Below are positions 77 through 12,864 of a DNA stretch of 24,305 nucleotides, piece by piece; position 1 is the stretch's first letter; each line of letters begins with the position of its first letter. The DNA lies in the IMG/VR virus record IMGVR_UViG_3300043466_003756, positions 1 through 24,305 of that record; one strand, given 5' to 3'. The position numbers were made by a program, and so were the translations under genes. Source of the stretch: a virus. The notes beneath the pieces are model-generated. The model did not search any database, was not told where the DNA came from, and was given only the letters and a program-made list of their open reading frames with translations.

Positions 77-131
77 ATAAATAATCTTACAAAAAAGAAA
101 TACAGATAATGCAAAAATTAATTAAAGGATT
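74..131 (+). repeat. Promoter-leader-targeting-peptide cassette, copy 1
   Basis: TAG, late box, the leader beginning TCTTACAAAAAA and the first seven or eight codons (M-x-KLIKGF) match 472-530 with a one-base length difference and a few substitutions. The protein sequences beyond the targeting peptide are unrelated. A third, looser copy starts at 3872. Confidence 0.75.
77..84 (+). promoter_or_regulatory. T4-type late promoter box (ATAAATAA) for the 109 gene
   Basis: ATAAATAA follows directly on TAG; the T4 late consensus is TATAAATA. The ATG lies 24 nt downstream, after an A-rich leader without Shine-Dalgarno sequence. The box plus its leader recurs almost exactly at 475-507. Confidence 0.7.
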
Positions 132-474
132 TCAACAGTTCGTAAATGAAAACCACATGGACCATGAAGACTCTAATTCCATTGCTAGAGAACTTGGAAC
201 AATGGGATTTCAGACGGTTGCAACTGCCTATTCGGGTAACAGTAACGACGACATGCTTAGGCTTGAGTTCAGCAACCTGCCGGGTAAAAACGTGCTAATT
301 AGCCTTGACTCATTAGCCAATGTACTGGATCCATCGGTACTCGACTCTGATTCGGATGAAGATCATGAGGCGGTCAATCAAGCACTATGGGATAGAGCAC
401 AAGAGATTGCAAGGCGTGCAGGTTGTTCTGTATTAATAGACAATGAATCGGGAGAAGAGATTGACTTGACCTAG
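109..474 (+). CDS. Capsid-targeted small protein, function unknown
   Basis: This encodes 121 residues. The first 14 residues (MQKLIKGFQQFVNE) form an amphipathic basic/aromatic peptide ending in V-N-E, which fits the [L/I]-x-E rule of the T4 gp21 prohead protease, so cleavage after E14 is predicted. The remainder is acidic, especially around 75-88 (DPSVLDSDSDEDHE), and resembles no family I recognise. It has its own late box, and the ATG is set by identity of leader and start with the 508 gene. Packaging in the head and injection are inferred by analogy with T4 internal proteins IPI-IPIII. The gene stops at TAG directly before the next late box. Confidence 0.8.
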   Translation: MQKLIKGFQQFVNENHMDHEDSNSIARELGTMGFQTVATAYSGNSNDDMLRLEFSNLPGKNVLISLDSLANVLDPSVLDSDSDEDHEAVNQALWDRAQEIARRAGCSVLIDNESGEEIDLT

Positions 475-530
475 ATAAATAATCTTACAAAAAAAAAAAT
501 ACAGATAATGAAAAAATTAATTAAAGGATT
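472..530 (+). repeat. Promoter-leader-targeting-peptide cassette, copy 2
   Basis: This is the second copy of the 74-131 element. Identity covers the stop codon, late box, leader and first codons (MKKLIKGF) and then fades within the targeting peptide. Confidence 0.75.
475..482 (+). promoter_or_regulatory. Late promoter box for the 508 gene
   Basis: ATAAATAA directly follows the TAG of the preceding gene. The A-rich leader to the ATG (25 nt) is nearly identical to the one upstream of 109. Confidence 0.7.
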
Positions 531-957
531 TACTCAATTCGTTAATGAGAACGAAATTCAAGAGGGCGATCGCATGGCTTCGTTTAGAACAACGACTGAG
601 TCCAACCTAATGACCGCCATTAAAATGGAAGTTGATAAGCTACTACCTGAATGGAATACATCTCTTCAAAAATCTAGCGACGTCGAAGGCGGCTACATCA
701 TCTATGTTGAGAGTCCAGAAGATCCTGAGAACTACTACTTCATTGAGCCCGCAACTGATAACTACTACAAGGGCCAGGAAGAAGAGGATGACTTTTCACC
801 GGCTGGCGATGTTGCTGACGTATTCATTACCAAGGGCGATGGGTCAACGAACCAAGACTCAATAACCGTGACCGCTAATCCTGGCGACTACTCAATGGAG
901 AAGCTTGCCAGACGAGTTGCACTAAAGCTTGCGACCTGGATCAGCGACGAAAACTAA
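508..957 (+). CDS. Capsid-targeted protein, function unknown
   Basis: This encodes 149 residues. The N-terminus MKKLIKGFTQFVNE is almost the same as that of the 109 gene and ends in V-N-E, so processing after E14 is predicted. The body is not similar to the 109 product. It is acidic, with a stretch rich in Tyr, Glu and Asp around residues 67-95, and shows no membrane segment or recognisable catalytic motif. It is driven by its own late box and followed by a strong terminator, so it ends this transcription unit. Role as an injected internal head protein is inferred from the targeting peptide alone. Confidence 0.8.
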   Translation: MKKLIKGFTQFVNENEIQEGDRMASFRTTTESNLMTAIKMEVDKLLPEWNTSLQKSSDVEGGYIIYVESPEDPENYYFIEPATDNYYKGQEEEDDFSPAGDVADVFITKGDGSTNQDSITVTANPGDYSMEKLARRVALKLATWISDEN

Positions 958-978
958 ACATTACTATTCAAGTTTAAT

Positions 979-1004
979 AAGGGGCCATTGAGCCCCTTTT
1001 TTTT
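979..1004 (+). terminator. Intrinsic terminator after the 508 gene
   Basis: AAGGGGC (979-985) pairs with GCCCCTT (992-998) around a 6-nt loop, followed by a T tract of about eight. The T tract runs straight into a TATAAT box. Confidence 0.88.
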
Positions 1005-1005
1005 G

Positions 1006-1011
1006 TATAAT
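1006..1011 (+). promoter_or_regulatory. TATAAT-type promoter for the tRNA cluster
   Basis: TTTTGTATAATAG matches the TTT(A/T)GTATAATA pattern seen at 7809, 9615 and 14029. It lies 9 nt before the acceptor stem of the first tRNA-like gene, so transcription could begin at or just before the tRNA 5' end. No -35 element is evident. Confidence 0.6.
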
Positions 1012-1020
1012 AGACTCTAT

Positions 1021-1092
1021 AGTCAGGCGCTGGGCGGTTACGACTCATAGAGTAGAGATGAAATTATACAGGTTCGAATCCTGTCCTGACTA
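1021..1092 (+). tRNA. Atypical tRNA-like gene
   Basis: The acceptor stem AGTCAGG/CCTGACT is perfect over 7 bp, and the T arm ACAGG-TTCGAAT-CCTGT is perfect with canonical loop bases. The middle is poor: the D stem is weak, and the best anticodon stem has only four pairs (TCAT/ATGA) with a loop around GAGTAGAG. If read in register, that loop would present GTA without the normal U33. No CCA is encoded. It may be a degenerate tRNA or one with unusual structure, and I cannot assign an amino acid. Confidence 0.45.
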
Positions 1093-1100
1093 CATGGTGC

Positions 1101-1169
1101 TCTGTAAAGCCTCTTATCGTGAGATAACGTAACAGAAGTGGATAATCCAGAAATGGATGACGCTCCACT
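1101..1169 (+). ncRNA. Candidate structured RNA with two GNRA hairpins
   Basis: Two abutting arms are visible. Arm A is TCTGT (1101-1105) with ACAGA (1132-1136), enclosing TTATC-GTGA-GATAA (1114-1127). Arm B is AGTGGA (1137-1142) with TCCACT (1164-1169), enclosing ATCCA-GAAA-TGGAT (1145-1158). All four helices pair perfectly, and both loops are GNRA tetraloops. There is no T-arm sequence, so it is not a normal tRNA. It sits between two tRNA-like genes and is probably co-transcribed with them. Confidence 0.45.
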
Positions 1170-1173
1170 ACAT

Positions 1174-1250
1174 AGTCAGGTGGCGGAATTGGTCAGACGC
1201 AAGCATCTACTGGATGCACTATATTACAGGTTCGAATCCTGTCCTGACCT
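1174..1250 (+). tRNA. tRNA-like gene, anticodon ACT if the loop is standard
   Basis: The D arm is classical (GCGG-AATTGGTCAG-ACGC) and the T arm ACAGG-TTCGAAT-CCTGT is perfect. The acceptor is GTCAGG/CCTGAC plus an A1-C72 mismatch. The anticodon arm is GCAT-CTACTGG-ATGC, closed by an A-A mismatch, which gives anticodon ACT (Ser AGU). The short variable loop does not suit a normal Ser tRNA, and C32-G38 could pair, so identity is uncertain. Its T arm and 3' acceptor strand repeat those of the first tRNA-like gene over 23 nt (1068-1090 and 1226-1248). Confidence 0.55.
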
Positions 1251-1269
1251 CTAATACAAATAGAACAAC

Positions 1270-1455
1270 ATGAAAGAACAAAAAGTACTCGTGACCGGTG
1301 ATCAGGGCTCGCATGAGGTGCAGGCCAAGGTGGATGCCCTACTTACCGAGGGTTGGCAGATTGTGTCAGTTACCGCACAGCACGTTTCCACAGGTTCAAG
1401 CCAGTTCTTTAGGGGCGGTTACTTCATCGTCTTTGAACGGGCGGTTGGAGAATAA
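1270..1455 (+). CDS. Small DUF4177-like protein
   Basis: This encodes 61 residues. The layout resembles DUF4177-type small proteins: a beta strand (KVLVTG), a helix, then LLTEGWQIVSVTAQ and a final strand GGYFIVFER. The EGWxxVS core is the most telling feature. No targeting peptide or signal is present. It lies directly downstream of the tRNA-like genes with no terminator between, so it is probably on the same transcript. Its TAA stop lies inside the next late box (1452-1459). Molecular function of the family is unknown. Confidence 0.65.
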   Translation: MKEQKVLVTGDQGSHEVQAKVDALLTEGWQIVSVTAQHVSTGSSQFFRGGYFIVFERAVGE

Positions 1456-1459
1456 ATAA
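1452..1459 (+). promoter_or_regulatory. Late promoter box overlapping a stop codon (1483 gene)
   Basis: ATAAATAA contains the TAA stop (1453-1455) of the upstream gene. The ATG is 23 nt downstream after an A-rich leader. Confidence 0.65.
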
Positions 1460-1482
1460 CTCTAACTAAAAAAGACTAACTC

Positions 1483-1962
1483 ATGAAATACCTTAAACTA
1501 TTTGAGAATCTCATGCATGACTCTGATGATGAGACCAGACCAGTCCGCTGCACGATACTGCCAACCGTTCGATCGGTTGGAACCAGCCTAACCCAACGAG
1601 CCCTTCGAATTGGGCTGGCCAATCTGGACAGGATCAGGACACGATACGAAAATGAGCCCGACTCATACACTCAATCCGGAACCAAGACTCTACACAAGAT
1701 GATAATAGACCGAGACACCGACGGTCTGCTTAAGTTTGAACCTCTATTGAAATTGAGCCCGGCTGAATTTGAGAACTTTAGCCTTGATGCGATGGACCGG
1801 GCAATGGATTTCGTAAAGGCCAACGGTCTGGAATTGATTGGCCCACGTGGATCGAGTTTTAGACTGCCGATTCGGCTGAATGCCCAATGGAAAAGCTATT
1901 GCGAGACCGAGACTGCCAAGCTAATCAAAGACTATGTTGGCGATAACCCAATTCAAGAATAA
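1483..1962 (+). CDS. Capsid-targeted protein, function unknown
   Basis: This encodes 159 residues. It starts MKYLKLFENL, the second class of targeting peptide in this window (KYIKLFEE type), with L-F-E at residues 6-8 as the likely cleavage site. The rest is rich in Arg and Leu, mostly helical in appearance, and matches no family I know. It has its own late box and is followed by an intrinsic terminator, so it is probably monocistronic. Its codons favour GAG, CTG and GGC more than the AT-richer genes further downstream. Confidence 0.75.
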   Translation: MKYLKLFENLMHDSDDETRPVRCTILPTVRSVGTSLTQRALRIGLANLDRIRTRYENEPDSYTQSGTKTLHKMIIDRDTDGLLKFEPLLKLSPAEFENFSLDAMDRAMDFVKANGLELIGPRGSSFRLPIRLNAQWKSYCETETAKLIKDYVGDNPIQE

Positions 1963-1980
1963 ACAAGTACACATGATTCT

Positions 1981-2012
1981 AAAAGGACCCATAGCAATAT
2001 CGGTCCTTTTTT
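1981..2012 (+). terminator. Intrinsic terminator after the 1483 gene
   Basis: AAAAGGACC (1981-1989) pairs with GGTCCTTTT (2002-2010) and is followed by further T residues. The T tract merges into the next late box. Confidence 0.8.
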
Positions 2013-2013
2013 A

Positions 2014-2021
2014 ATAAATAA
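2014..2021 (+). promoter_or_regulatory. Late promoter box, nearly leaderless (2026 gene)
   Basis: ATAAATAA ends only 4 nt before the ATG at 2026. With T4-like spacing, transcription would start at or next to the start codon. Confidence 0.7.
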
Positions 2022-2025
2022 CTTT

Positions 2026-2853
2026 ATGAAGTACATCATATCTAAGCAACTTTTTGAAAGTAGGGACCTACTAAAGCCCAAGCTAATGAGGCTTATTGAG
2101 AGTTGGGTCATGGGCAATGAAGAGAGTCTTAGGTTTACCGAATCGGATGCCGATGAACTGATTAGACTGATCGAGAACAATCCTTTCATCCGCGAAGAGA
2201 GCCTTAGGCAACTAGACTCCAAGAGAGTGAAGACTCTTTGGCGTGGGCTGCACCAGGACTGGGAACCGGATTCAGATAACTACACCATACATGATCGAAT
2301 AACCTCCTTTTCTTCTGATCGGGATGTTGCAGCCAGGTTCGGTGAACACACCCTATTGTCGATACCAATAGAAAAGGTTCGTCCGAATATTCTACTCTCC
2401 ATTGAATGGGCAGCCAGCTGGTTGGGTCTTGCCAAGGTCTCTCCGGAGCAGGCAAAGGCTGAAGAAGAAGGCGAGTGGAGCGATGATCCAGACGTAAGCT
2501 TTAGATACATGGCCTGGAGCCAAAAGGAGTATCTGGTTAAGTTGCCTCTGCCTGCTGAGACCAAGAGCACCAACATTCACCGCTCCCAGTCCATGGAGAC
2601 TCTTCATACCAAGGACGGCACCAAGATTATTATCACCCGCATTGGCCCTAGTCCCGAATTCGGTGCAAAAGACAGACTGGGTCCAGACCCTATTGTTGTA
2701 ACCAATGTGACCGTGAAAAACCCAAGATTCGGTCAGGATAGTAAGGAACCCATGAATCTTCCAATGCGCTCTGATTTTCCTGAAGGCACATCGAACGAGG
2801 AGATCCTGCGCTATTGGGAAGATCGACTAGCCGGCTCAAGTAACTACCTGTAA
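2026..2853 (+). CDS. Predicted capsid-targeted ADP-ribosyltransferase (Alt-like role)
   Basis: This encodes 275 residues. It starts MKYIISKQLFES with a possible cleavage site L-F-E at 9-11. The middle shows the R-S-E order of mono-ADP-ribosyltransferases: LWRG with R73, then ITSFSSDRDVAARFG (S94-S97, the STS-like strand with the vA..F helix), then WSQKEYLVKLP with Q166-x-E168 as the ARTT signature. The R-S-[Q/E]xE class transfers ADP-ribose from NAD+ to proteins. T4 Alt is a packaged ART injected with the DNA that modifies host RNA polymerase, and a comparable role is inferred. The 100-residue C-terminal tail is unassigned. QxE rather than ExE makes the target residue uncertain. The start is fixed by the late box 4 nt upstream. 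Confidence 0.65.
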   Translation: MKYIISKQLFESRDLLKPKLMRLIESWVMGNEESLRFTESDADELIRLIENNPFIREESLRQLDSKRVKTLWRGLHQDWEPDSDNYTIHDRITSFSSDRDVAARFGEHTLLSIPIEKVRPNILLSIEWAASWLGLAKVSPEQAKAEEEGEWSDDPDVSFRYMAWSQKEYLVKLPLPAETKSTNIHRSQSMETLHTKDGTKIIITRIGPSPEFGAKDRLGPDPIVVTNVTVKNPRFGQDSKEPMNLPMRSDFPEGTSNEEILRYWEDRLAGSSNYL

Positions 2854-2854
2854 T

Positions 2855-2862
2855 ATAAATAA
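2855..2862 (+). promoter_or_regulatory. Late promoter box, nearly leaderless (2867 gene)
   Basis: Here the full T4 consensus TATAAATA (2854-2861) is present, directly after the TAA of the previous gene. The ATG follows after 4 nt. Confidence 0.75.
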
Positions 2863-2866
2863 TCCC

Positions 2867-3343
2867 ATGAAGTATATTAAACTATTCGAGGAACTTGCCT
2901 CTGATCTACCGACCCTAAGGGACGTGGTCGAGAATAACCCTGACGAGTTCGAAGATTTTGAAAGGGCCGCACTTGAAACGGTCAATGCTCTTGATCTTAA
3001 ACTTGATCCAGATGAACAACGACTTCGGGAGATTGGCCTCATTGACGAGTACGAACTGTTCGATAGAGTCACGCTGGTGTTCAATATTAATGAGCTCACA
3101 CACGCTGATGGCCCAAGGCTCAGAGCCCTGGTTCAGAAGTTTCCGGGACTCTTCACGCTTGATTACGATGAGCTTATCGCCAGCCGCAAAGCGATTCCCG
3201 ACAAGGAGATTGATCCGGAAGCTGACATCGATCCTGGAGATCCAGTAGATGTGATCGTGTGGAAGGACTCAGCTGGTAATACTGCGGTCCAATGGGAGAG
3301 CTTCTATGTTAAGATGTGGTTCATGTTGGGCTCAGCATTATAA
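2867..3343 (+). CDS. Capsid-targeted protein with RLRExGL motif, paralogue of next gene
   Basis: This encodes 158 residues. The targeting peptide MKYIKLFEE has L-F-E at 6-8. Residues 52-58 (RLREIGL) carry a short motif shared with four other targeted proteins here. The body is related to the next gene: TLRDV near the N-terminus, the RLRExGL segment, a VFNINELTH segment, a KFPG segment, and a C-terminal strand ending in AVQWE are all matched in order. This points to a tandem duplication followed by divergence. No catalytic residues are recognisable. A leaderless late transcript is predicted. Confidence 0.75.
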   Translation: MKYIKLFEELASDLPTLRDVVENNPDEFEDFERAALETVNALDLKLDPDEQRLREIGLIDEYELFDRVTLVFNINELTHADGPRLRALVQKFPGLFTLDYDELIASRKAIPDKEIDPEADIDPGDPVDVIVWKDSAGNTAVQWESFYVKMWFMLGSAL

Positions 3344-3354
3344 AAAAAACTCAA

Positions 3355-3879
3355 ATGAAATACCTTAAGATATTCGAAGAATTCAATAATTCAGAACTTG
3401 CAACTCTACAGGACGTGCTCAATCCGGACCATTTTGCCGAGGCGGAAGACCGCCTTGAGATGTACTCAGAGGCCGCGATTGAGACCTGTAAAATGCTTGG
3501 CATTGAGCCACCGCCGGATGTTGCCAGACTCCATGAACTTGGCCTTGCTAATCAGCAACAACTGCTTGACAGCTTACCGCTGGACTCTGTGGTTGAGGTC
3601 TTTAACCTGCTGGCTCTCACCCACCTGACCGAGCCGAGCGTTCGTGAATTCTGCCGTCGCTTTCCTGGTATAATAACCTATGATCCGGACACCGACGAGT
3701 ATCGTCGACCTGAGAGTTCACGACAGCTTAAAGAGATCTTTCTTGAGTCGCCGGAATACGGGGACGAGGTTAGGGTGGTGCTCTTTGAGGACGGGAACGG
3801 GACTAGAGCGGTTGAATGGGAGGACCAAGACTATCTAGGCTACTTCATGCTTAGACGGGACCTTGAGTCTAATAAATAA
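3355..3879 (+). CDS. Capsid-targeted protein, diverged tandem paralogue
   Basis: This encodes 174 residues from the ATG at 3355. An in-frame ATG at 3316 would add 13 residues inside the upstream gene and hide the targeting peptide, so I reject it. The N-terminus MKYLKIFEEF has I-F-E at 6-8, and RLHELGL (58-64) is the shared motif. Similarity to the 2867 product runs through TLQDV, FNLLALTH, RRFPG and AVEWE. The spacer is only 11 nt and has no good late box, although TATAAAAA (3340-3347) could be a weak variant, so co-transcription with the 2867 gene is likely. Function unknown. Confidence 0.75.
   Translation: MKYLKIFEEFNNSELATLQDVLNPDHFAEAEDRLEMYSEAAIETCKMLGIEPPPDVARLHELGLANQQQLLDSLPLDSVVEVFNLLALTHLTEPSVREFCRRFPGIITYDPDTDEYRRPESSRQLKEIFLESPEYGDEVRVVLFEDGNGTRAVEWEDQDYLGYFMLRRDLESNK
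3872..3879 (+). promoter_or_regulatory. Late promoter box overlapping a stop codon (3904 gene)
   Basis: ATAAATAA contains the TAA stop 3877-3879. The leader starts TCTTACAAAAA exactly as at 109 and 508, making this a third, looser copy of that cassette. Confidence 0.68.
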
Positions 3880-3903
3880 TCTTACAAAAACAACAATAAA
3901 ACA

Positions 3904-4479
3904 ATGCAAAAATTAGTTAAAAACTTTAATCAATTCGTGAACGAGAGTCTTACTGGAGACGAAGAAGGCCGACTAAGGGAACTTGGATTACTTATTGATT
4001 GGGATGTTGAGCTCGAGATTGAGTTCGATCAAGCTTGTCAGAGTGAACCGGAATACATCAAGAGCAAATTGATTGAGTGGTTACCTGAAATTAATTCAGT
4101 TAGCTCCGATTTTCAGGTAAAGGAGGACTCAGTTGATATCGATGAATGGACCGAGGAGGATTACGTATCACGAGATGATGAGATTCCAACCGAAGATGAG
4201 ATTGACCAAATGAGAAAACCTGAGTTACTAGACTTAATTGATGAACTTGGGCTTGATGTTGATACTAAGGAAAGGCTCGGTGAGCTTATAGACCTTGTGA
4301 AGCAGGCGATAGAGGATCAAGGTTTTGACTCAATGAATTATGATCAGAGAAACTTTATTAGGTTCACGATCGTAACCACAACTGATAACCAGGATGAGGT
4401 TCACAATTGGATAGAAACCAATATTGTTGGCAACGGTAGAGTATTTAGTGGTATTGAGGAACTTGAAAGAGTCGGTTAA
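3904..4479 (+). CDS. Capsid-targeted acidic protein with SAP/Rho-N-like helix pair
   Basis: This encodes 191 residues. The targeting peptide MQKLVKNFNQFVNE ends in V-N-E (cleavage predicted after E14). RLRELGL at 23-29 is the shared motif. Residues about 102-138 (MRKPELLDLIDELGLDVD, then a second helix) resemble a SAP, HeH or Rho N-terminal helix-turn-helix module, a fold that often binds nucleic acid. The rest is strongly acidic. An internal head protein that contacts DNA would fit, but that is inference. A hairpin terminator follows. Confidence 0.75.
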   Translation: MQKLVKNFNQFVNESLTGDEEGRLRELGLLIDWDVELEIEFDQACQSEPEYIKSKLIEWLPEINSVSSDFQVKEDSVDIDEWTEEDYVSRDDEIPTEDEIDQMRKPELLDLIDELGLDVDTKERLGELIDLVKQAIEDQGFDSMNYDQRNFIRFTIVTTTDNQDEVHNWIETNIVGNGRVFSGIEELERVG

Positions 4480-4501
4480 ATAATAAAAAACGCAAGCAAT
4501 C

Positions 4502-4528
4502 AAAGCTCCAATATTTGGGGCTTTTTTT
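4502..4528 (+). terminator. Intrinsic terminator after the 3904 gene
   Basis: AAAGCTCC (4502-4509) pairs with GGGGCTTT (4517-4524), including one G-T wobble, and runs into seven T residues. Confidence 0.82.
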
Positions 4529-4546
4529 GTGCCAGTAGATCGGGCG

Positions 4547-4554
4547 ATAAATAA
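4547..4554 (+). promoter_or_regulatory. Late promoter box for the 4573 gene
   Basis: GATAAATAAC lies 18 nt before the ATG. There is no Shine-Dalgarno sequence in the leader. Confidence 0.65.
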
Positions 4555-4572
4555 CAATAAACTGGAATCCCT

Positions 4573-5076
4573 ATGTTCAACAACATTTCAGACATTCTTA
4601 AGAGCTTCACGCCAGCCCAGCGAATCACGGCCCTGCTCATACTTGTATTCACGATAGTGCTTATTAGTCTGGGTCCAAGCCTAATCGATCGCCACACGAC
4701 CGACTGTTCCGAGCTTGAGATCAGGGTCAAGAGCCAACAGACTCAGATCATGGAGCTCTCGGCCCAGGTCGAGAAACTCAATCGTGATCTCATTAGCGGC
4801 CAGAGCGAGTGCACGGCAAACCTAATTCAAAAACAGCAAGAGATCATGAACATTGTCAATGGCATGATCGAGGAGGCCCAGTGCAGTGTCAAGCCTGCAG
4901 TTCGTCGTCAAGAACAAATGATGAAGTCTAGACCCGATCAGGGATCTGGTGCCGGTGAAGGTGAACTGGCCTATTCCAGAGCCCCAGAGCCCGAACCTGT
5001 ACAGGTGATCGATGAGACCCTACCCAAGCTTAAGCAGCTCAAGGCTCAAATCCAAAAAACCATGAGGTCCAAGTAA
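4573..5076 (+). CDS. Single-pass membrane protein with periplasmic coiled coil
   Basis: This encodes 167 residues. A hydrophobic segment at about 17-37 (TALLILVFTIVLISLGPSLI) is followed by a heptad-rich coiled coil at about 45-75 and a second helix near 83-100. A Pro/Glu-rich linker (APEPEPVQ) and a Lys-rich tail complete it. It lacks the [L/I]-x-E targeting peptide of its neighbours. A short cytoplasmic N-terminus, one membrane helix and a long helical outer part would suit an inner-membrane spanin subunit or an envelope-anchoring protein, but there is no specific signature. It is late-expressed judging by its box. Confidence 0.65.
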   Translation: MFNNISDILKSFTPAQRITALLILVFTIVLISLGPSLIDRHTTDCSELEIRVKSQQTQIMELSAQVEKLNRDLISGQSECTANLIQKQQEIMNIVNGMIEEAQCSVKPAVRRQEQMMKSRPDQGSGAGEGELAYSRAPEPEPVQVIDETLPKLKQLKAQIQKTMRSK

Positions 5077-5100
5077 ATGCCAAGCGTAATAACCGGTTAA

Positions 5101-5108
5101 ATAAATAA
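5101..5108 (+). promoter_or_regulatory. Late promoter box for the TTG-start gene at 5116
   Basis: ATAAATAA is preceded directly by a 10-bp palindrome TAACCGGTTA (5090-5099). The TTG start lies 7 nt downstream. Confidence 0.68.
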
Positions 5109-5115
5109 TTCTACT

Positions 5116-5742
5116 TTGAAATACATTAAACTATACGAAAACTTCTTTGAGGACATGGAACGCGCAGCGGACCAAGCTCACAAGCCCGTGCCTTTCAAAA
5201 AGCAGGAGAAGAAGCCCAAGCCTGAACCTGCAGCCGAGCCTGAAGAGGAGCCAGTTAAGGTGCAAGAACCCGCTGAAACCGAGCCCGAAGAGGACACTAC
5301 TGAAACGACACCTGAAGCACCAGCGCCTGAGGAACCCAAAACATTTAAGGACTGGCTCACAGGTAAAGTAAAAAAGCTGGTTGAGTTCGAAGAGACCAAT
5401 GAGAGCGTGAAGTGTTGGGCCGAGCTTGAGAATGAAACCTCATGCCAATGGTCCATTTCAATGGAGGATTACCCAACAGTTGAAGCAAGTTTCAAGCTTG
5501 GAGCAGACACCGTCTACCTGGACGATGATACCTCTGGCGAGATTGCTCGTGAGTACTACACCAAAAAGCGAGAGTACGATCCAAAACCTTGGACCGAATG
5601 CGTGCTCAAGGTTGGAGCCCAGTTTCCGGACTTCATGAGAAGAATGGAGAAGGATGCAATCAATCGAGCAACAGATCAAGACATTGAACTCTCAAAGATA
5701 GTTGCAGCCCAATTCGGCACCCAAAAAACAGGCAAAAAATAA
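5116..5742 (+). CDS. Capsid-targeted protein with Pro/Glu-rich linker, TTG start
   Basis: This encodes 208 residues starting at TTG. The start is supported because it yields the targeting peptide MKYIKLYENF (L-Y-E at 6-8) immediately after a late box. Residues about 22-75 form a low-complexity region of Lys, Pro, Glu and Thr (KKPKPEPAAEPEEEP), probably disordered. This is followed by KTFKDWLTGKVKKLVEFEE and a folded C-terminal domain with WAELEN, CQWSISMEDY and VYLDDD. I do not recognise that domain. The extended linker suits a flexible internal protein. The next gene starts 10 nt after the stop, so both are probably on one transcript. Confidence 0.72.
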   Translation: MKYIKLYENFFEDMERAADQAHKPVPFKKQEKKPKPEPAAEPEEEPVKVQEPAETEPEEDTTETTPEAPAPEEPKTFKDWLTGKVKKLVEFEETNESVKCWAELENETSCQWSISMEDYPTVEASFKLGADTVYLDDDTSGEIAREYYTKKREYDPKPWTECVLKVGAQFPDFMRRMEKDAINRATDQDIELSKIVAAQFGTQKTGKK

Positions 5743-5752
5743 AAGATCATTC

Positions 5753-6091
5753 ATGAAAAATTTAAAAGCATTTGATCAATTCATAAACGAAGATCAAGAC
5801 CTCGATAAAGGCGAAAAGGACCGTCTTAGAGATCTGGGTTTAACTAATTACTCTGCCCCGTTTAAAGAACGTTACACAACTTTAGTTGACGAATGGAGTT
5901 CTGATCCGGAAGTAAATGCTGCAATCGATACTCTAAAATCTAAGTTCCAAGAACTGTTCGAAAAGCACATAGACTCTGAGTCTGATGACGATTCTCAAGA
6001 ACTTGAACAGGTTAAAACCTGGATGTATGATTCTAGCGGAATTGACGATATTGGTTGGTTCGAGTACATTTTGCTCAATGACCTTTACTAA
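5753..6091 (+). CDS. Capsid-targeted small protein with RLRDLGL motif
   Basis: This encodes 112 residues from the ATG at 5753. An earlier in-frame ATG (5702) lies inside the previous gene and would mask the targeting peptide. MKNLKAFDQFINE ends in I-N-E (cleavage after E13), and RLRDLGL at 24-30 is the shared post-peptide motif. The remainder is acidic and helical, with DSESDDDSQELEQ near 82-94 and WFEYILLNDLY at the end. Function unknown. It lacks its own late box, lies 10 nt after the preceding stop, and is followed by a strong terminator. Confidence 0.75.
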   Translation: MKNLKAFDQFINEDQDLDKGEKDRLRDLGLTNYSAPFKERYTTLVDEWSSDPEVNAAIDTLKSKFQELFEKHIDSESDDDSQELEQVKTWMYDSSGIDDIGWFEYILLNDLY

Positions 6092-6115
6092 TAATCAATA
6101 GATCTTTTATAACCG

Positions 6116-6141
6116 ACCGGCCCATGTGGCCGGTTTTTTTG
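6116..6141 (+). terminator. Intrinsic terminator after the 5753 gene
   Basis: ACCGGCC (6116-6122), loop CATGT, GGCCGGT (6128-6134), then a run of T. The terminator ends directly at a TACATT promoter-like box. Confidence 0.9.
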
Positions 6142-6147
6142 TACATT
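6142..6147 (+). promoter_or_regulatory. TATAAT-like promoter (TACATT) for the 6154-6871 pair
   Basis: TTTTTTGTACATTAAT sits as TTTTTTTGTATAATAG does at 1006, again right after a terminator. The ATG is 6 nt downstream, consistent with a leaderless start. Confidence 0.45.
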
Positions 6148-6153
6148 AATCTC

Positions 6154-6261
6154 ATGAAGAATCTTAATAAATGGACTCTCTGGGATTGGGCTATCGTATT
6201 CATCTTTACTGCATGGATAGTTGGCATGACCTGCATCCTAGTCAATACTCCGCTAAACTAA
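6154..6261 (+). CDS. Small single-pass membrane protein (35 aa)
   Basis: The short ORF encodes MKNLNKWTLWDW followed by a hydrophobic segment of about 19 residues (AIVFIFTAWIVGMTCILV) and a short tail NTPLN. It fits exactly between a terminator/promoter pair and the next ATG 4 nt after its stop. This position and the clear membrane helix support it as real. Such tiny phage membrane proteins often modulate host envelope or defence functions, but nothing in the sequence says which. Confidence 0.6.
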   Translation: MKNLNKWTLWDWAIVFIFTAWIVGMTCILVNTPLN

Positions 6262-6265
6262 CACA

Positions 6266-6871
6266 ATGAAAATAACCGATGAGATAATAGTCAAATTCTT
6301 TGGGCAGGGTCGAGGATTTGTAATGGTCTCGATAAAGAGATGGGGTGGATTCGTTAGCCATGAAGACGATCTTGAGCATGCCCAGTTCTGCGCAATTCGT
6401 AGCGCAGTTTCAGCCAAGAATCGAGAACTTGAATTTGAGAATGAGGTTCACATGGTAAATTACTTGATGAAGACTTGCTATTGGGGATGGTGTGAGGCCG
6501 TAAAAAAGAGGTTGGAAACACCGGTCGTTTTGGAAAGTCAATTAATTCCGGATTGGGCAGATGACGACTATGTGCCGTCCGGTAGACTCGAAGAAAGTGT
6601 TGAGCCTAAAGAAATTGTGTTGAACCCGCACCGGCTGCACGAGGTCGCAAAGAGATTAGTCCTCCACAAATTAGGACCGACCTATGCTCGAATCTTTGAA
6701 TTGCATCATGTTAATGAACTAGCTCTCAAGGAAATCTCTAAAGAGATTGGATTATCAGTTTCGACAATTACGACCAGATTATCAACGATTAGAAGACTAC
6801 TTCATCGTCGATTCAAAAGTTTTGCAAATAGAGATTACAAAATAGGCCAAAACCAACTTCAAAATTTCTAA
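6266..6871 (+). CDS. Sigma-70-family (ECF-like) protein, candidate phage sigma factor
   Basis: This encodes 201 residues. A region-2-like helical segment (HEDDLEHAQFCAIRSAV through YLMKTCYWGWCEAVKKR, about 30-85) is followed by an acidic linker. A convincing region 4 helix-turn-helix lies at about 150-182 (LALKEISKEIGLSVSTITTR, then LSTIRRLLHRRF). The two-domain layout and length match small sigma factors of ECF type. In T4-like phages a divergent small sigma (gp55) directs late transcription from TATAAATA, so this or the 7825 product is a candidate for recognising the ATAAATAA boxes. Its own promoter is of the TATAAT type, fitting expression before the late stage. A terminator follows. Confidence 0.62.
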   Translation: MKITDEIIVKFFGQGRGFVMVSIKRWGGFVSHEDDLEHAQFCAIRSAVSAKNRELEFENEVHMVNYLMKTCYWGWCEAVKKRLETPVVLESQLIPDWADDDYVPSGRLEESVEPKEIVLNPHRLHEVAKRLVLHKLGPTYARIFELHHVNELALKEISKEIGLSVSTITTRLSTIRRLLHRRFKSFANRDYKIGQNQLQNF

Positions 6872-6893
6872 GTAGTTTGGGCTTACTTATTCT

Positions 6894-6923
6894 AAACGGG
6901 CTCCTCTTGGGCCCGTTTTTTAT
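6894..6923 (+). terminator. Intrinsic terminator after the 6266 gene
   Basis: AAACGGGC (6894-6901) pairs with GCCCGTTT (6911-6918), followed by T-rich sequence. Confidence 0.88.
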
Positions 6924-6940
6924 TTTATGGGATCCGGCAA

Positions 6941-6948
6941 ATAAATAA
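6941..6948 (+). promoter_or_regulatory. Late promoter box for the annexin/lysozyme gene
   Basis: CAAATAAATAAC lies 25 nt before the ATG. A second, weaker TAAATAAT follows at 6954-6961 and could be an alternative start region. Confidence 0.62.
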
Positions 6949-6973
6949 CTAGGTAAATAATTAGTAACTCTAA

Positions 6974-7798
6974 ATGAAGCATGTAAAACTATTTGAGAGC
7001 TGGATAAACGAGGCCTTAACTGCAGACCAAATCGCTGCACAAATTCAGACATCAACCGCTGGAATGGGTACAGACGAGGAGGCTTTGGCTGCCGCCATCA
7101 AATCAATTCCAGATGCATATTCATTAGTCAAGATCAATAAGGCCTTGAAGGCAGGTCACGAGGATCCACAGAAATCATGGGAGTATCCAAGCGTTGGAGA
7201 TGCAATCAACGGCGAGCTTGGAATTATGGATTCTGACTACAAGAATCAAATAATGACCCACATCAAGAACATTAGAGCAGAACAATACCTCAACTCATTT
7301 AAAGCACCACCTCCCCCAACCGATCCGGTTATTGCTTCGATCAAGAATCGAGTTATAAAACATGAAGGCTCAAAACCTTTTAAGTATCTGGATTCCAGAA
7401 AGATCCCAACGGTAGGAGTAGGTTTTAATCTTAATCGTGAAGATGCGACTGCTCAGTTAAAAAAGGTAGGAGCTAATCCGGAAAAGGTTAAGGCTGGTAA
7501 ATCCCCATTGACTCAAGAACAGATAACTGCTCTGCTCTTTACTGATCTTAAGCAGGCTAAAGTTAATGCACAGGAATTAGTCCCGAACATGCCAAACCTA
7601 CCAACTCAAGTCCAGGGAGTCTTAACTGAAATGGTTTTCAATTTAGGTAAAAGAGGTCTCTCGGAGTTTACTAATTTCCTAACCCATATCAAACAGAAAA
7701 ACTTTGATGCTGCCTCTGAAGAAATGCTGAGGTCAACTTGGGCAAAGCAGGTAGGAGATCGTGCCAAGACTCTAGCCGATATCATTAAAACGTCCTAA
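6974..7798 (+). CDS. Capsid-targeted annexin-like / T4-type lysozyme fusion
   Basis: This encodes 274 residues. MKHVKLFESWINEA contains both L-F-E (6-8) and I-N-E (11-13), so cleavage after E13 is likely. Residues about 15-106 look like an annexin repeat: GMGTDEEALAAAIKSI at 30-45 is close to the GxGTDE core, and ELGIMDSDYKNQIMTHI suits its later helices. After a Pro linker (PPPPT), residues about 118-274 form a GH24 lysozyme with the T4 triad spacing E131-D140-T146 (HEG, YLD, IPTVGVGFN). It would hydrolyse peptidoglycan. A packaged lysozyme could open the wall during DNA entry, while the annexin-like part may bind membrane or virion. The late promoter supports a structural role. Confidence 0.8.
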   Translation: MKHVKLFESWINEALTADQIAAQIQTSTAGMGTDEEALAAAIKSIPDAYSLVKINKALKAGHEDPQKSWEYPSVGDAINGELGIMDSDYKNQIMTHIKNIRAEQYLNSFKAPPPPTDPVIASIKNRVIKHEGSKPFKYLDSRKIPTVGVGFNLNREDATAQLKKVGANPEKVKAGKSPLTQEQITALLFTDLKQAKVNAQELVPNMPNLPTQVQGVLTEMVFNLGKRGLSEFTNFLTHIKQKNFDAASEEMLRSTWAKQVGDRAKTLADIIKTS

Positions 7799-7808
7799 CC
7801 TTTTTTAG

Positions 7809-7814
7809 TATAAT
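7809..7814 (+). promoter_or_regulatory. TATAAT promoter for the ECF sigma gene
   Basis: TTTAGTATAATAAG is 10 nt before the ATG. The 12-mer TCCTAACCTTTT upstream (7793-7804) recurs before the similar promoter at 9615. No -35 TTGACA is seen. Confidence 0.68.
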
Positions 7815-7824
7815 AAGTCTACCT

Positions 7825-8370
7825 ATGGACTTAAACTTACGCCACACCGACTCATTGGTCGATGCGGCCCGAACTGGAAATCGTCGAGCTCTCACAGATC
7901 TGTGGGATCAGTGGAAACCTCTTGCTTACCAAAACGCTGCTCGATACTTAAAGGATCAAGACGACCTTGATCAAGCAGTAGCTCAAGGGCTGACTAAAGC
8001 TTTCATGAATCTTGATAAGTGGAGCGGCACCGGCCCTTTTGCTGCATGGTTGGCAAGGATCGTGCGTAATGAAACGGTTAATTGGATCAGACAGTTCAAA
8101 ACGAAAACTAAAGCATTCTCGGATATTGAAGGCATTGACATTGAAACCCAAGACGTTCATGCGGATCGACCGGCTTTGAACCTGATTAGGGAAATCGTAA
8201 ATCAACTTCCAACTCGACAGCAATTGGCATTTAAACTTGTTGTCTATGAGGACCTATCGTACGAGCAGGCAGCAGTTCACATGGGTACAACGGCAGGTGC
8301 AGTTAAATCAAACGTGCATGATGCCAAGACCAAATTAAGAAAACAGTTATCCAGGACTGGACTTCGATAA
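7825..8370 (+). CDS. ECF-type RNA polymerase sigma factor
   Basis: This encodes 181 residues. Sigma region 2 spans about 8-92, with DQDDLDQAVAQGLTKAF and the core-binding/promoter-melting stretch FAAWLARIVRNETVNWIR. Region 4 spans about 124-178, with LPTRQQLAFKLVVYEDLSYE followed by QAAVHMGTTAGAVKSNVHDA. This order and length are typical of ECF sigma factors. It would redirect host RNA polymerase to a phage promoter set, TATAAT-like or ATAAATAA. Its TATAAT-type promoter and short leader place it with the early or middle genes, although it lies between two late genes. Confidence 0.85.
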   Translation: MDLNLRHTDSLVDAARTGNRRALTDLWDQWKPLAYQNAARYLKDQDDLDQAVAQGLTKAFMNLDKWSGTGPFAAWLARIVRNETVNWIRQFKTKTKAFSDIEGIDIETQDVHADRPALNLIREIVNQLPTRQQLAFKLVVYEDLSYEQAAVHMGTTAGAVKSNVHDAKTKLRKQLSRTGLR

Positions 8371-8391
8371 TTCTTGAAGAATTCTACTAGA

Positions 8392-8399
8392 ATAAATAA
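8392..8399 (+). promoter_or_regulatory. Late promoter box for the 8423 gene
   Basis: ATAAATAA is 23 nt before the ATG. A palindrome AATTCTTGAAGAATT lies just upstream, after the sigma stop codon. Confidence 0.65.
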
Positions 8400-8422
8400 A
8401 CCTGAAATAAATTACGTAATAG

Positions 8423-9589
8423 ATGCCAAAGTACATAAAATTATTTGAAGAAAAAACGACTGACATATTAATGGCCGAGTTAGAAGATCTTGAGAGATTA
8501 AGGGAAATAGGGCTAGTCGATGATCAAGAATATGCTGAGCAGACGTCGAGTATTCGCCGTCAGCTTAACATACAGGCCAAAAGCATATTAAATACCAAAT
8601 CACAACATAAAGTTTATTCAAACGAATGGTTTGAAGATCTTAGAACGAAACCTGAATTCAGATGGCTGATCGATGTGTTTGATTCTCCGGAATATGCAGC
8701 CCTAGTTGAGAAAGGTGTTGTTCTATCATCATCATTCACTCAACTGCTCAATCGTACTCTAGTCTTTTCAAAGAGTTTTGATCGAAATCCAAAAGCTGAC
8801 TTTGCATTAGGCTTCTTCGCATCAACCAATGTAGTAAGGCGAATCGTTCCTAAAACTGGATACAGAGATTTGGACATGGTCATGAAGAGATTTGAAAGAC
8901 TTAGCGAAACTCAATTTTTTAAGACCGCTATGCGATGGGCATCAGATAATGTAGATTTTTCAGACCGATCGTTTCCGACTAAGAGAGCTTCAGCTTCAGC
9001 TAAAAGGGCAATCGATGATCAAACTATTTTGATGAACTTGATTACTAAACTTGTTCAAGAGGACATGACTAAAATTAGTGCAAGCGAGTCTCAAAAAACA
9101 ATTGAATCTCTTTACCATACGATGGGAGGCCTGAATGATGCAGCTCTTCGTAAAAATTCAATTAAGAATCTAACAAATTATTTCGAAAATGGTTCATGTA
9201 AGATAGTGTTTACCGGTAACCAAACTTACACGCAAGACATGATAACTGTTCTATCTAAGCCTGGAATATCAATTTCGCACGATAGATCAGGTCAATATCA
9301 ATTTGGAGGTCAAATTACAAACCTTGATAACTTTAACTTTCTACCTGTGAGCGATCCAAAAGTGAGATCTATTTCAATCTCACCAGATAAAAATCAGTCT
9401 CGTGAGATTGGTTTTGAGAGCTTGGAAGTGGTGCTTGATAAATTATCTAGTGTAGGAATAATGTTGGCTAGTTACGTTTCAGTCTACGGTGGAGGCAGGG
9501 CAATTTTTGCTGACGAAAACGAGAGAATTAAGAGAATTTCCAATCGACATGGAATCGATTACTTAAATGCTGACACAAGAGTTACTTAA
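8423..9589 (+). CDS. Large capsid-targeted protein, function unknown
   Basis: This encodes 388 residues. MPKYIKLFEEK carries L-F-E at 7-9. RLREIGLVDDQEYAEQ (25-40) is the clearest copy of the shared post-peptide motif and resembles a SHOCT-type helical hairpin. The remainder has a helical middle and a beta-rich C-terminal third, including CKIVFTGNQTYTQDMITVLS and VSVYGGGRAIFADENE. I recognise no catalytic site. It is the largest unknown cargo candidate in the window. Late expression is predicted from its box; no terminator separates it from the sigma gene upstream. Confidence 0.72.
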   Translation: MPKYIKLFEEKTTDILMAELEDLERLREIGLVDDQEYAEQTSSIRRQLNIQAKSILNTKSQHKVYSNEWFEDLRTKPEFRWLIDVFDSPEYAALVEKGVVLSSSFTQLLNRTLVFSKSFDRNPKADFALGFFASTNVVRRIVPKTGYRDLDMVMKRFERLSETQFFKTAMRWASDNVDFSDRSFPTKRASASAKRAIDDQTILMNLITKLVQEDMTKISASESQKTIESLYHTMGGLNDAALRKNSIKNLTNYFENGSCKIVFTGNQTYTQDMITVLSKPGISISHDRSGQYQFGGQITNLDNFNFLPVSDPKVRSISISPDKNQSREIGFESLEVVLDKLSSVGIMLASYVSVYGGGRAIFADENERIKRISNRHGIDYLNADTRVT

Positions 9590-9614
9590 TCCTAACCTTT
9601 TACTCTCAATTTAG

Positions 9615-9620
9615 TATAAT
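9615..9620 (+). promoter_or_regulatory. TATAAT promoter for the AEP-like gene
   Basis: TTTAGTATAATAAG, identical over 14 nt to the promoter at 7805-7818, ends 8 nt before the ATG, implying little or no leader. TCCTAACCTTTT (9590-9601) lies upstream. Confidence 0.7.
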
Positions 9621-9628
9621 AAGCCAGT

Positions 9629-10231
9629 ATGGTCAACAATACTGAGCAGATCAGATCGATGTTACGATTCGATTCTGAAGATACTTTCTACTTTTTACAG
9701 GTCTTTAAGAGACGTAAGGATAATCCTGATATGGCCAAGGACATGATTGTTCTTGCGAACTACTGTGTCAAATCATTAGGCCATTTTGACAAGCTTGTGC
9801 CTGATATAATTAAACAGTGTCAAGACAATAATGCCAGAGCTTATATTAGACTCAATCGTAGAAGTTATAAAAAGGCCGCTTTAAAAGCCATGAGATTAAC
9901 TGCTGAATACATTGAGGCTGGCCAATATAGATCAGTTCGAAAAGCATTTGACTGCGCAGCGGGACAGTATCACGCCGATCCTGACAAGACCTGGATAATC
10001 GATATTGATTACAAGGATCTTGAAGGGGACCATGATCAAGCGATCAATGCAATAATCAGCTCAGTTCAAAATCTAATCTCTGAAACTGATAGAGACGATA
10101 CAGTTTGGACGATCAACAGCAAGAACGGAATTCACCTGATCTGTCGACCTTTCAATCTTCAAAAATTTAAAATCTCGTACCCAAAAATAGACGTTCACAA
10201 AGATAATCCAACAATTCTATATGCAAACTAA
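9629..10231 (+). CDS. AEP (archaeo-eukaryotic primase)-like protein
   Basis: This encodes 200 residues. The C-terminal half shows three motifs in the order expected for the AEP primase/polymerase core: WIIDIDYKD (D125, D127) as metal-binding motif I, TINSKNGIHLICRPFN (S164, H169) as the S-x-H motif II, and YPKIDVHKDNPTILY (D188, D192) as motif III. The N-terminal half is helical and Lys/Arg-rich. The family could synthesise primers or be a repurposed nucleotidyl-binding fold. There is no helicase or zinc-finger domain, so it is smaller than typical prim-pol proteins. It overlaps the next gene by 11 nt. Confidence 0.5.
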   Translation: MVNNTEQIRSMLRFDSEDTFYFLQVFKRRKDNPDMAKDMIVLANYCVKSLGHFDKLVPDIIKQCQDNNARAYIRLNRRSYKKAALKAMRLTAEYIEAGQYRSVRKAFDCAAGQYHADPDKTWIIDIDYKDLEGDHDQAINAIISSVQNLISETDRDDTVWTINSKNGIHLICRPFNLQKFKISYPKIDVHKDNPTILYAN

Positions 10232-10427
10232 TTTATTACACGACCTAGCAACATACTTGATAGTGGGCCTCATTTGGGGAGCCATCATTGAATACATTGA
10301 ATCTAAGCAGACAAATCGACAGATCCCTAAAACTCTAATAGCTCGAGTAGTTGTCATCCTAACCTGGCCGATAACCGTGTTCGTAATGCTATTGGGAATG
10401 ATCCGAAATTTATTAACTGGAAAATAA
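10221..10427 (+). CDS. Small membrane protein (two predicted helices)
   Basis: This encodes 68 residues. Hydrophobic segments at about 9-25 (ATYLIVGLIWGAIIEYI) and 42-63 (ARVVVILTWPITVFVMLLGM) flank a short basic loop, predicting a two-pass inner-membrane protein. Its start overlaps the end of the AEP-like gene by 11 nt, indicating coupled translation. The overall shape would suit a holin-like or regulatory membrane protein, but no family signature is seen and it is not beside the lysis genes. Confidence 0.65.
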   Translation: MQTNLLHDLATYLIVGLIWGAIIEYIESKQTNRQIPKTLIARVVVILTWPITVFVMLLGMIRNLLTGK

Positions 10428-10432
10428 GAAAT

Positions 10433-10642
10433 ATGTCAAAAACAATAATCGTACACGAAAGATTTAGAACCAATGAACTAAGTCTTCGTCCTGGTGGTTA
10501 CTCGGTGACCGTCGTTTATTCAAATGGAACTCAAAGAGTTTACAATAACGTAAAGAATCCAAAGACCTACATTAATTCTATTGCAAAGGACGAGACAATC
10601 GTTAAGACTCTAGTGGATGGTGAAGTTTACTGGACAAGATAA
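10433..10642 (+). CDS. Small protein of unknown function
   Basis: This encodes 69 residues. It appears as a small beta-rich fold: TIIVHERF, YSVTVVYSNGTQRVYNNV, then a helix and VDGEVYWTR. The PGGYSVTVVYSNG stretch suggests a beta hairpin. No targeting or signal peptide is present. It follows the preceding gene by 5 nt, and its TAA stop lies within the next late box. Confidence 0.6.
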   Translation: MSKTIIVHERFRTNELSLRPGGYSVTVVYSNGTQRVYNNVKNPKTYINSIAKDETIVKTLVDGEVYWTR

Positions 10643-10646
10643 ATAA
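10639..10646 (+). promoter_or_regulatory. Late promoter box overlapping a stop codon (10652 gene)
   Basis: GATAAATAAT contains the upstream TAA stop (10640-10642) and ends 5 nt before the ATG at 10652, so the late mRNA should be close to leaderless. Confidence 0.7.
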
Positions 10647-10651
10647 TTCAA

Positions 10652-12034: not shown

Positions 12035-12851
12035 TAAAGTAAGTTTTATTTGCACCACTTATCGCAGATACAGATGTGTTGAAAGAATTATAGAGCAATT
12101 TATTCAACAAGATTATCCACACAAAGAATTAATTATCTTCAACACGGATGTTAATAATCCAATGAGCCTTGATCCTGACCTTGCTGATTTAAACATAGTT
12201 CTTATCAATAATGATACTGACTACGTAACTGGCAAATCTTATACGAATAGAGGTGCGATATGTAGAGATGCAGTAACTCATGCAACTGGCGAGTACTTCA
12301 TGCTTGCTGACGATGACGATGCCTATTTACCATGGCATATTCGCCAAGCAGTGGATGGAATCTCTGCGAACGGTAAGGATGCTTGGAAACCTGAAAGAAG
12401 CATCTTTGCAACTCCACATAAGGTTGAACTTACTCGAAATACTCTGGAAGCATCAGTGATTGTAAAGATGAATCGAATCCGAGAAATTGGATTTAGGGAT
12501 GATATGACCGGTTACGAAGGTTTGAGCTGGTATACCAAGCTTAGGGATGAAAAGAATCTGGACGAACACTTTACACATTACGTTCCATCGTACTGTTTTA
12601 ACTGGTCGGATCCTTCGGACATGGCAGGTCACAAGCAGTCAGGCGATATTAATAATCCATCTAACTTTGACAATCACAAGATCGCATCTACTGACGTTTC
12701 AGCAAAACCATTGAATCGCTGCGGCCAGTCCGTAATCGAGCCTTTTTATAACAGGTTCTACGAATTTTTATCTAACACTAAAAACAATTACGATCCGGAA
12801 CTATGGGCAAAATACGTAAGCCCTTACGTCCTGGAGAGGTTGGATGCTTAG
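12027..12851 (+). CDS. Family 2-like glycosyltransferase
   Basis: This encodes 274 residues. The GT-A start KVSFICTTYRRYRCVERIIE is followed by KELIIFNTDVN and the nucleotide-sugar/metal motif LADDDDAY (D95-D98), then helices and a short C-terminal domain. This matches GT2-type enzymes that transfer a sugar from a nucleotide-sugar donor. The gene is translationally coupled to the GT/methyltransferase gene upstream by overlap. Likely targets are phage DNA-independent glycans such as tail or capsid glycoproteins, or host envelope polysaccharide; the sequence does not decide. The stop TAG directly precedes a late box. Confidence 0.78.
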   Translation: MTNKVSFICTTYRRYRCVERIIEQFIQQDYPHKELIIFNTDVNNPMSLDPDLADLNIVLINNDTDYVTGKSYTNRGAICRDAVTHATGEYFMLADDDDAYLPWHIRQAVDGISANGKDAWKPERSIFATPHKVELTRNTLEASVIVKMNRIREIGFRDDMTGYEGLSWYTKLRDEKNLDEHFTHYVPSYCFNWSDPSDMAGHKQSGDINNPSNFDNHKIASTDVSAKPLNRCGQSVIEPFYNRFYEFLSNTKNNYDPELWAKYVSPYVLERLDA

Positions 12852-12859: not shown

Positions 12860-12864
12860 TTCTG

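What the first reader, a model, noticed from the sequence alone, without database searches (positions are those of the whole stretch)
2026..2853. Predicted injected ADP-ribosyltransferase, an Alt analogue with a QxE signature
R73 (LWRG), an STS-like SFSS at 94-97 with the vAxxF helix, and Q166-x-E168 occur in the R-S-E order of mono-ARTs, behind a targeting peptide and a late box. QxE rather than ExE would predict a target residue different from the Arg modified by T4 Alt.
Basis: partly seen in the sequence, partly recalled or inferred. Interest (0 to 1): 0.72.

Follow-up and report, generated by a model that had tools for sequence, protein, structure and literature searches.

The report
Phage-packaged ADP-ribosyltransferase, probably injected
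A freshwater giant phage appears to pack into its head an enzyme that would tag host molecules with ADP-ribose on infection, built like known phage and bacterial enzymes of this kind but probably with an altered active-site residue that may change what it modifies.

Summary
Window 2026-2853 encodes 275 aa with LWR73G, S94FSS..VAxxF and Q166-K-E168, a T4-internal-protein-like tag and a late box. The triple motif occurs in no other of 2,399 phage ORFs and in 0 of 20,000 shuffles. Evidence that it is an ADP-ribosyltransferase (ART) of the R-S-E clade: the only meaningful Pfam matches are two ART families, DRAT and ART; hhalign to T4 ModA/ModB-type enzymes gives P 5e-6, far above shuffles and other phage ORFs; an AlphaFold model from a 22-row alignment shows the ART strand order, and its PDB neighbours are mostly ARTs, though plain Foldseek has no significant match. 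Relatives encode a gp21-type prohead protease, supporting tag removal and packaging. Corrections: the catalytic domain is Mod/DraT-like, not Alt-like; it is Alt-like only in its predicted route. QxE is likely but not settled: a second acidic pair, E148-G-E150, is where a DraT profile places the catalytic pair. A non-arginine target is therefore plausible, not shown. It is a new member of a known kind (virion-packaged phage ARTs), in a fast-changing cargo island.

The parts
2026..2853 (+). ART gene, 275 aa (P0001)
   Evidence: intact in a second contig
2026..2058 (+). predicted capsid-targeting tag MKYIISKQLFE, cleavage predicted after E11
   Evidence: same 12-residue register as MKYLKKYKIFES/MKYIKKYKIFES tags in relatives; T4 IPII/IPIII start MKTYQEFIAEA; Peptidase_S77 in relatives
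2014..2021 (+). late-promoter-like box ATAAATAA
   Evidence: association with tagged genes
1981..2010 (+). hairpin plus T run, intrinsic terminator of the preceding gene
   Evidence: fold -12.8 kcal/mol, z -4.9; not called by the simple terminator scan
2236..2247 (+). LWRG, R73 = first ART motif
   Evidence: aligned with invariant R-G of Mod-type and DraT ARTs
2305..2343 (+). SFSSDRDVAARFG, S94-G106 = second ART motif and following helix
   Evidence: same motif in DraT and phage ARTs
2521..2529 (+). Q166-K-E168, favoured catalytic QxE
   Evidence: aligned with E-x-E of the ModA/ModB family; predicted strand 168-172
2467..2475 (+). E148-G-E150, rival ExE
   Evidence: DraT profile alignment puts the catalytic pair here
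1483..1962 (+). neighbouring tagged cargo gene (MKYLKLFENL)
   Evidence: no family
2867..3343 (+). neighbouring tagged cargo gene (MKYIKLFEEL), conserved in a relative that lacks the ART at this place
3355..3879 (+). neighbouring tagged cargo gene (MKYLKIFEEF), conserved in relatives that lack the ART at this place

Best explanation
The gene encodes an R-S-E clade mono-ADP-ribosyltransferase made late in infection, packed into the phage head through an N-terminal tag that the prohead protease removes after E11, and delivered with the DNA into the next host, where it binds NAD through R73 and S94 and uses E168 to move ADP-ribose onto a host macromolecule. Shown here by computation: the three-motif order, the profile relationship to ModA/ModB-type and DraT ARTs, the ART-like predicted fold, the tag, the box, and a gp21-type protease in relatives. 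Inferred: packaging, cleavage, injection, enzymatic activity, QxE as the catalytic pair, and the target (by analogy with T4, transcription or translation proteins; residue possibly not arginine).
For: Pfam: DRAT E 0.0037-0.018 (in one sub-stretch 0.039) and ART (PF01129) E 0.08-0.11 over residues 60-118; no other family named at E up to 1 for the whole protein. hhalign to 15 ModA/ModB/Mod-like phage enzymes: score 43.4, P 5e-6, against 23.8 for the best of 200 shuffles and 22.1 for the best other phage ORF. A DNA pattern for the S motif alone, scanned over bacterial genomes, recovered 93 places: 45 had both R and [EQ]xE motifs (dominated by genes of DraT type), 45 had neither, 3 had one. Linker L244 carries all three motifs and matches phage proteins annotated RNA polymerase ADP-ribosylase (E down to 2e-14) and phrog_832 (2.6e-7). 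L239 with the same motifs matches ADPrib_exo_Tox at 7.8e-18. AlphaFold on 22 rows: pLDDT about 80 over most of residues 41-170, strands 70-75, 92-96, 109-114, 122-125, 168-172; most of the VIA-align rows are ART-fold proteins, the best being KptA/Tpt1 Z 6.5, 82 residues, 3.0 A. Tag and protease.
Against: No single database match passes a curated cut-off. The folding alignment was chosen for ART motifs, so the model is not an independent proof; without an alignment the model is uninformative (pLDDT 36); plain Foldseek has no match with E below 3 in the PDB or 0.1 in BFVD; VIA Z values are middling. The tag is a slightly longer variant than its neighbours'. With the box so close to the ATG, a T4-type late start would give a leaderless message. 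No virion proteomics. No relative of the whole protein was found outside this phage, so conservation of the catalytic residues within a close family could not be tested.
Confidence: 0.72

Rival explanations
1. It is an ART, but the catalytic pair is E148-G-E150 (ExE), QKE lies outside the active site, and the target is arginine as for DraT and T4 Alt/Mod.
For: The DraT profile alignment, in local and global mode, places E148/E150 on the invariant ExE of DraT; EGEW resembles GEGEY of DraT and EEKEW of L244.
Against: The ModA/ModB-type profiles, whose R-S to E spacing is longer as here, put E168 on the catalytic Glu and Q166 on its partner; Y169-L-V-K-L continues as a predicted strand while W151-S-D-D-P does not; the phage relative L186 has QSEVIVK.
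Confidence: 0.2
2. It is a packaged protein of ART descent that is catalytically dead or acts only as an NAD glycohydrolase, for example to lower host NAD or to bind ADP-ribose.
For: The first Glu of ExE is replaced; the protein is fast-evolving, with no close relatives found.
Against: R, S, F, VAxxF and the second Glu are all kept, which a dead enzyme need not keep; QxE enzymes such as C3 are active transferases (PMC6628389).
Confidence: 0.15
3. The ART works inside the producing cell late in infection and the tag has another role, such as binding the head scaffold or serving a structural purpose.
For: A late box predicts late expression; T4 Mod enzymes, its closer relatives, are made in the cell rather than packaged (established knowledge of T4).
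Against: The tag resembles that of T4 internal proteins, whose known role is packaging (PMC3012670, PMC5694885), and the clade carries dozens of unrelated tagged proteins.
Confidence: 0.15
4. The motifs are chance and the protein is not an ART.
For: No curated cut-off is passed; the S motif alone also occurs in unrelated proteins such as adenylation domains; plain Foldseek finds nothing significant.
Against: 0 of 20,000 shuffles carry the triple motif; hhalign far above decoys; two ART families as the only Pfam hits.
Confidence: 0.05

Closest known systems
Mod family of phage ARTs (T4 ModA/ModB; Kuttervirus, Agtrevirus and Erwinia jumbo phage 'RNA polymerase ADP-ribosylase', phrog_832)
   Same: LW/YRG, S-F-S/T, AxxF, a long stretch between S and the catalytic pair, and an upstream helical region of similar length; hhalign P 5e-6 over residues 35-114
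   Different: Family members seen here with that region intact have a Glu-x-Glu pair, this one probably QxE; it carries a capsid tag and a C-terminal extension of about 95 aa; phrog_832 does not reach it in hmmscan
DraT, dinitrogenase reductase ADP-ribosyltransferase (PF07357)
   Same: Best Pfam match; SFSSDRDVA is identical to the S motif of several DraTs, and EYLV follows the catalytic Glu position
   Different: Below the cut-off of 25 bits; about 30 residues more between S motif and QKE; QxE for ExE; no DraG-type hydrolase found in six phage records searched; capsid tag
T4 Alt (Alt/VIP2 family)
   Same: Predicted route: head-packaged, tag removed by a gp21-type protease, injected; R-S-E clade
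   Different: T4 Alt is 682 aa with LYRS, FVSTS and NEMEVILP; no Alt PHROG match for this protein
C3-type QxE ARTs
   Same: Q-x-E in place of E-x-E
   Different: No sequence match; different host and context; used only as an analogy for residue choice (PMC6628389)
T4 internal proteins IPI-III
   Same: Short N-terminal tag, MKTYQEFIAE in IPII/IPIII and MKTFKEF in IPI
   Different: No similarity noted beyond the tag

Membership tests
ADP-ribosyltransferase superfamily, R-S-E clade | R, S-x-S/T and [EQ]-x-E in this order | tested here: met
ADP-ribosyltransferase superfamily, R-S-E clade | Profile similarity above decoys to known members | tested here: met
   hhalign score 43.4 against 23.8 best decoy
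ADP-ribosyltransferase superfamily, R-S-E clade | ART split beta-sandwich | tested here: inconclusive
   strand order fits and neighbours are mostly ARTs, but the alignment was chosen for ART motifs and Foldseek is not significant
ADP-ribosyltransferase superfamily, R-S-E clade | NAD-dependent transferase activity | not testable with these tools
   needs a biochemical assay
Mod family (phrog_832) | Family profile match | tested here: inconclusive
   no hmmscan match at E up to 1; profile-profile P 5e-6
Mod family (phrog_832) | ExE catalytic pair | tested here: inconclusive
   aligned pair is Q166-K-E168; rival E148-G-E150
DraT (PF07357) | Score above the curated cut-off of 25 bits | tested here: not met
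   13.6-16.9 bits
T4 Alt/VIP2 family | Alt profile match (phrog_802 and relatives) | tested here: not met
   no match at E up to 1; T4 Alt control scores 873 bits
T4-type capsid-targeted internal proteins | N-terminal tag ending at a [LI]xE-type cleavage site | tested here: met
   MKYIISKQLFE, compared with IPII/IPIII MKTYQEFIAE and relatives' tags; the [LI]xE rule itself is from established knowledge of T4
T4-type capsid-targeted internal proteins | Cognate prohead protease in the genome | tested here: inconclusive
   Peptidase_S77 in four relatives, one with 96% identical topoisomerase; the 67.5-kb partial contig of this phage itself shows none
T4-type capsid-targeted internal proteins | Presence of cleaved protein in virions | not testable with these tools
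   needs virion mass spectrometry

The most novel reading that the evidence does not exclude
A Mod/DraT-type ART was turned into an injected enzyme by adding a T4-like capsid tag and a late promoter, and its ExE became QxE, so that a phage would mark the host at the moment of entry on a residue other than arginine, a specificity that I did not find described for T4-like phage ARTs.
Probability: 0.3. Interest if true: 0.65.

Novelty: new member of a known kind. Interest (0 to 1): 0.42.

Why it matters
Virion-packaged ARTs are a known theme in myoviruses (PMC9503650), but the best-studied examples come from T4. This gene would show that the Mod/DraT branch, which T4 makes inside the cell, can also be carried in the head, and it gives a clean case to test whether a natural QxE phage enzyme modifies something other than arginine. 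It also helps to define a tagged cargo island in giant phages from environmental metagenomes, where a tag alone predicts what is injected.

Tried and rejected
Direct sequence searches for the whole protein gave only the phage itself: phages, plasmids, viral contigs, PDB sequences, NCBIfam and 30 related phage records. Single-sequence AlphaFold was uninformative (pLDDT 36). A pattern with AGR arginine and the full triple motif found nothing. My notebook entry 1 overstates that result ('all with 3rd motif'); the count here is the right one. An alignment-based scan with four ARTs returned only self. Toxin-antitoxin reading: no ADP-ribosylglycohydrolase or Macro family in six phage records, though records are partial. 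phrog_832 is absent from five phage records of this group. The Pfam scan of 51 other tagged proteins of the group named no ART family among its matches. No T4 Alt, KptA or PARP assignment is made from the structure list, since Z values are tied and middling. The plain Foldseek lists name no confident relative.

Full report
What was checked. It is intact in a second, near-identical contig of 67.5 kb. The strict R / S / [EQ]xE pattern is unique to it among 2,399 ORFs of 100 aa or more in the sequences fetched from this phage group by then, and absent from 20,000 shuffles of its own letters; a loose form of the pattern appears in 379 of 20,000 shuffles, so only the strict form is informative.

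Is it an ART? In Pfam the protein gives DRAT (E 0.018; 0.0037 for the first 125 residues) and, for sub-stretches, NAD:arginine ADP-ribosyltransferase (E 0.08-0.11), both over residues 60-118 and both under their cut-offs; nothing else is named at E up to 1. To reach relatives I scanned viral contigs for the DNA pattern of the S motif alone. It returned, next to unrelated proteins, L239, L242/L243 and L244 with complete R-S-E motifs. L239 matches ADPrib_exo_Tox at 7.8e-18 and L242 matches DRAT at 2.4e-5. L244, a 177-aa protein of a 332-kb viral contig, matches phage proteins annotated RNA polymerase ADP-ribosylase in Erwinia jumbo phages, Kuttervirus and Agtrevirus and phrog_832. The same pattern over bacterial genomes recovered 93 places, of which 45 carry both other motifs and read as DraT (several from Magnetospirillum, Rhodopseudomonas, Rhodobacter and Methylocapsa), 45 carry neither (many are adenylation domains) and 3 carry one. 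So the S motif by itself is not specific, but the three together are.

Profile test. Against an alignment of T4 ModA, T4 ModB and 13 relatives (A5), hhalign gives P0001 a score of 43.4 and P 5e-6 over residues 35-114; the best of 200 shuffles reaches 23.8 and the best other phage ORF 22.1. Adding L186, a viral-contig protein with LWRG, SFS and QSEVIVK, raises this to P 4e-7. Against DraT the score is 50.3, P 3e-7, but those DraTs were chosen by the S motif, so this number is partly circular; the A5 members other than L244 were not chosen that way, though some were reached through L244.

Structure. With 22 rows AlphaFold gives mean pLDDT 68 and block means from 73 to 87 between residues 41 and 170 except for a loop at 81-90, with strands at 70-75, 92-96, 109-114, 122-125 and 168-172. 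In the VIA-align second look most of the 50 rows shown are ART-fold proteins (KptA/Tpt1 Z 6.5 over 82 residues at 3.0 A first, then Z 3 to 4 for bacterial ART toxins, ART2.2, PARPs and DarT) with only a few unrelated chains. Plain Foldseek gave nothing significant. I take this as consistent support, not proof, since the alignment was chosen for ART motifs. Coordinates are not exposed, so the distance between R73 and E168 could not be measured.

Which catalytic pair? Profiles of ModA/ModB type align E168 with the catalytic Glu and Q166 with the first Glu (for A6 this is read directly, for A5 from the printed alignment, since the script's residue counter slipped at an insertion there; the A3 rows of that call are not usable for the same reason). 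The DraT profile, which lacks the extra residues, instead places E148-G-E150 on the ExE. The residues after E168 form a predicted strand, as in other ARTs, and those after E150 do not. I put QxE at about 70-75% given that it is an ART. QxE occurs in C3-like enzymes, and the reference list of PMC6628389 names work in which changing that Q to E turned an asparagine-specific enzyme into an arginine-modifying one. A non-arginine target is thus a fair but conditional prediction.

Packaging. MKYIISKQLFES aligns without gaps with tags such as MKYLKKYKIFES and MKYIKKYKIFES of a distant relative, and belongs with the MKYIKLFE and MQKLIKGFQQFVNE tags that open many genes here. T4 IPII and IPIII begin MKTYQEFIAEA and IPI MKTFKEF; the T4 tag suffices to package foreign proteins and is removed by gp21 (PMC3012670, PMC5694885). 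Four relatives, including one with a 96% identical topoisomerase, encode a Peptidase_S77 (gp21-type) domain. TAAATA boxes go with tagged genes. The ART gene follows a hairpin with a T run (z -4.9) and its box lies directly in front of the ATG; with T4 spacing (own knowledge) the message would be leaderless or nearly so.

Island turnover. None of 30 related phage records has a match to the ART, but many of these are fragments that may not reach this place. Two relatives do reach it: in one, the position upstream of the next tagged gene holds a small protein that reads as a GNAT-type acetyltransferase, and in the other the same protein lies upstream of the tagged gene after that; its family was not tested. 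The cargo region is mosaic, as is known for T-even internal proteins (PMC3012670).

Placement. A survey of viral ARTs reports T4Alt/VIP2 and Mod as the common R-S-E families, and that about 44% of phage ARTs lie in contexts suggesting packaging (PMC9503650). This gene fits that picture: a new member of a known kind, with a Mod/DraT-like domain, a T4-like tag and a probable QxE. It is not filed as Alt or as DraT, because those profile tests were not met.

Noticed in passing
window 1022-1090 and 1174-1251; also L077, L038, L044, L108, L102: Repeated tRNA-like elements share GTCAGG...GGTTCGAATCCTGTCCTGAC ends but have varied or missing anticodon arms; only one in the window is called (tRNA-Ser act, Rfam tRNA 37 bits), and in L077 several alternate with small ORFs.
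   Followed up: partly
window 109-14022: Twelve or so genes open with MK/MQ capsid-type tags; in the group, tagged proteins match AAA ATPase, CHAP, lysozyme, nucleotidyltransferase, M78 peptidase and LRR families, a candidate set of injected proteins.
   Followed up: partly
L010 26-373; L077 11250-11597: A small GNAT-looking gene sits in the same cargo region in relatives that lack the ART there.
   Followed up: no
L149 and L233 (C-terminal ~120 aa of a 745-aa ORF): A protein that looks like a portal protein carries a C-terminal region with ART-like motifs AWRG, SSFSDDRKVAAKF and ENEII; no Pfam family matched that region.
   Followed up: no
L244/L249, 332-kb viral contig: A second giant-phage-size contig encodes a stand-alone Mod-type ART with EKE.
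   Followed up: partly
window 1969-2013: A 45-bp block of terminator plus late box recurs at 91% identity in two other relatives, as if it were a cassette boundary.
   Followed up: no
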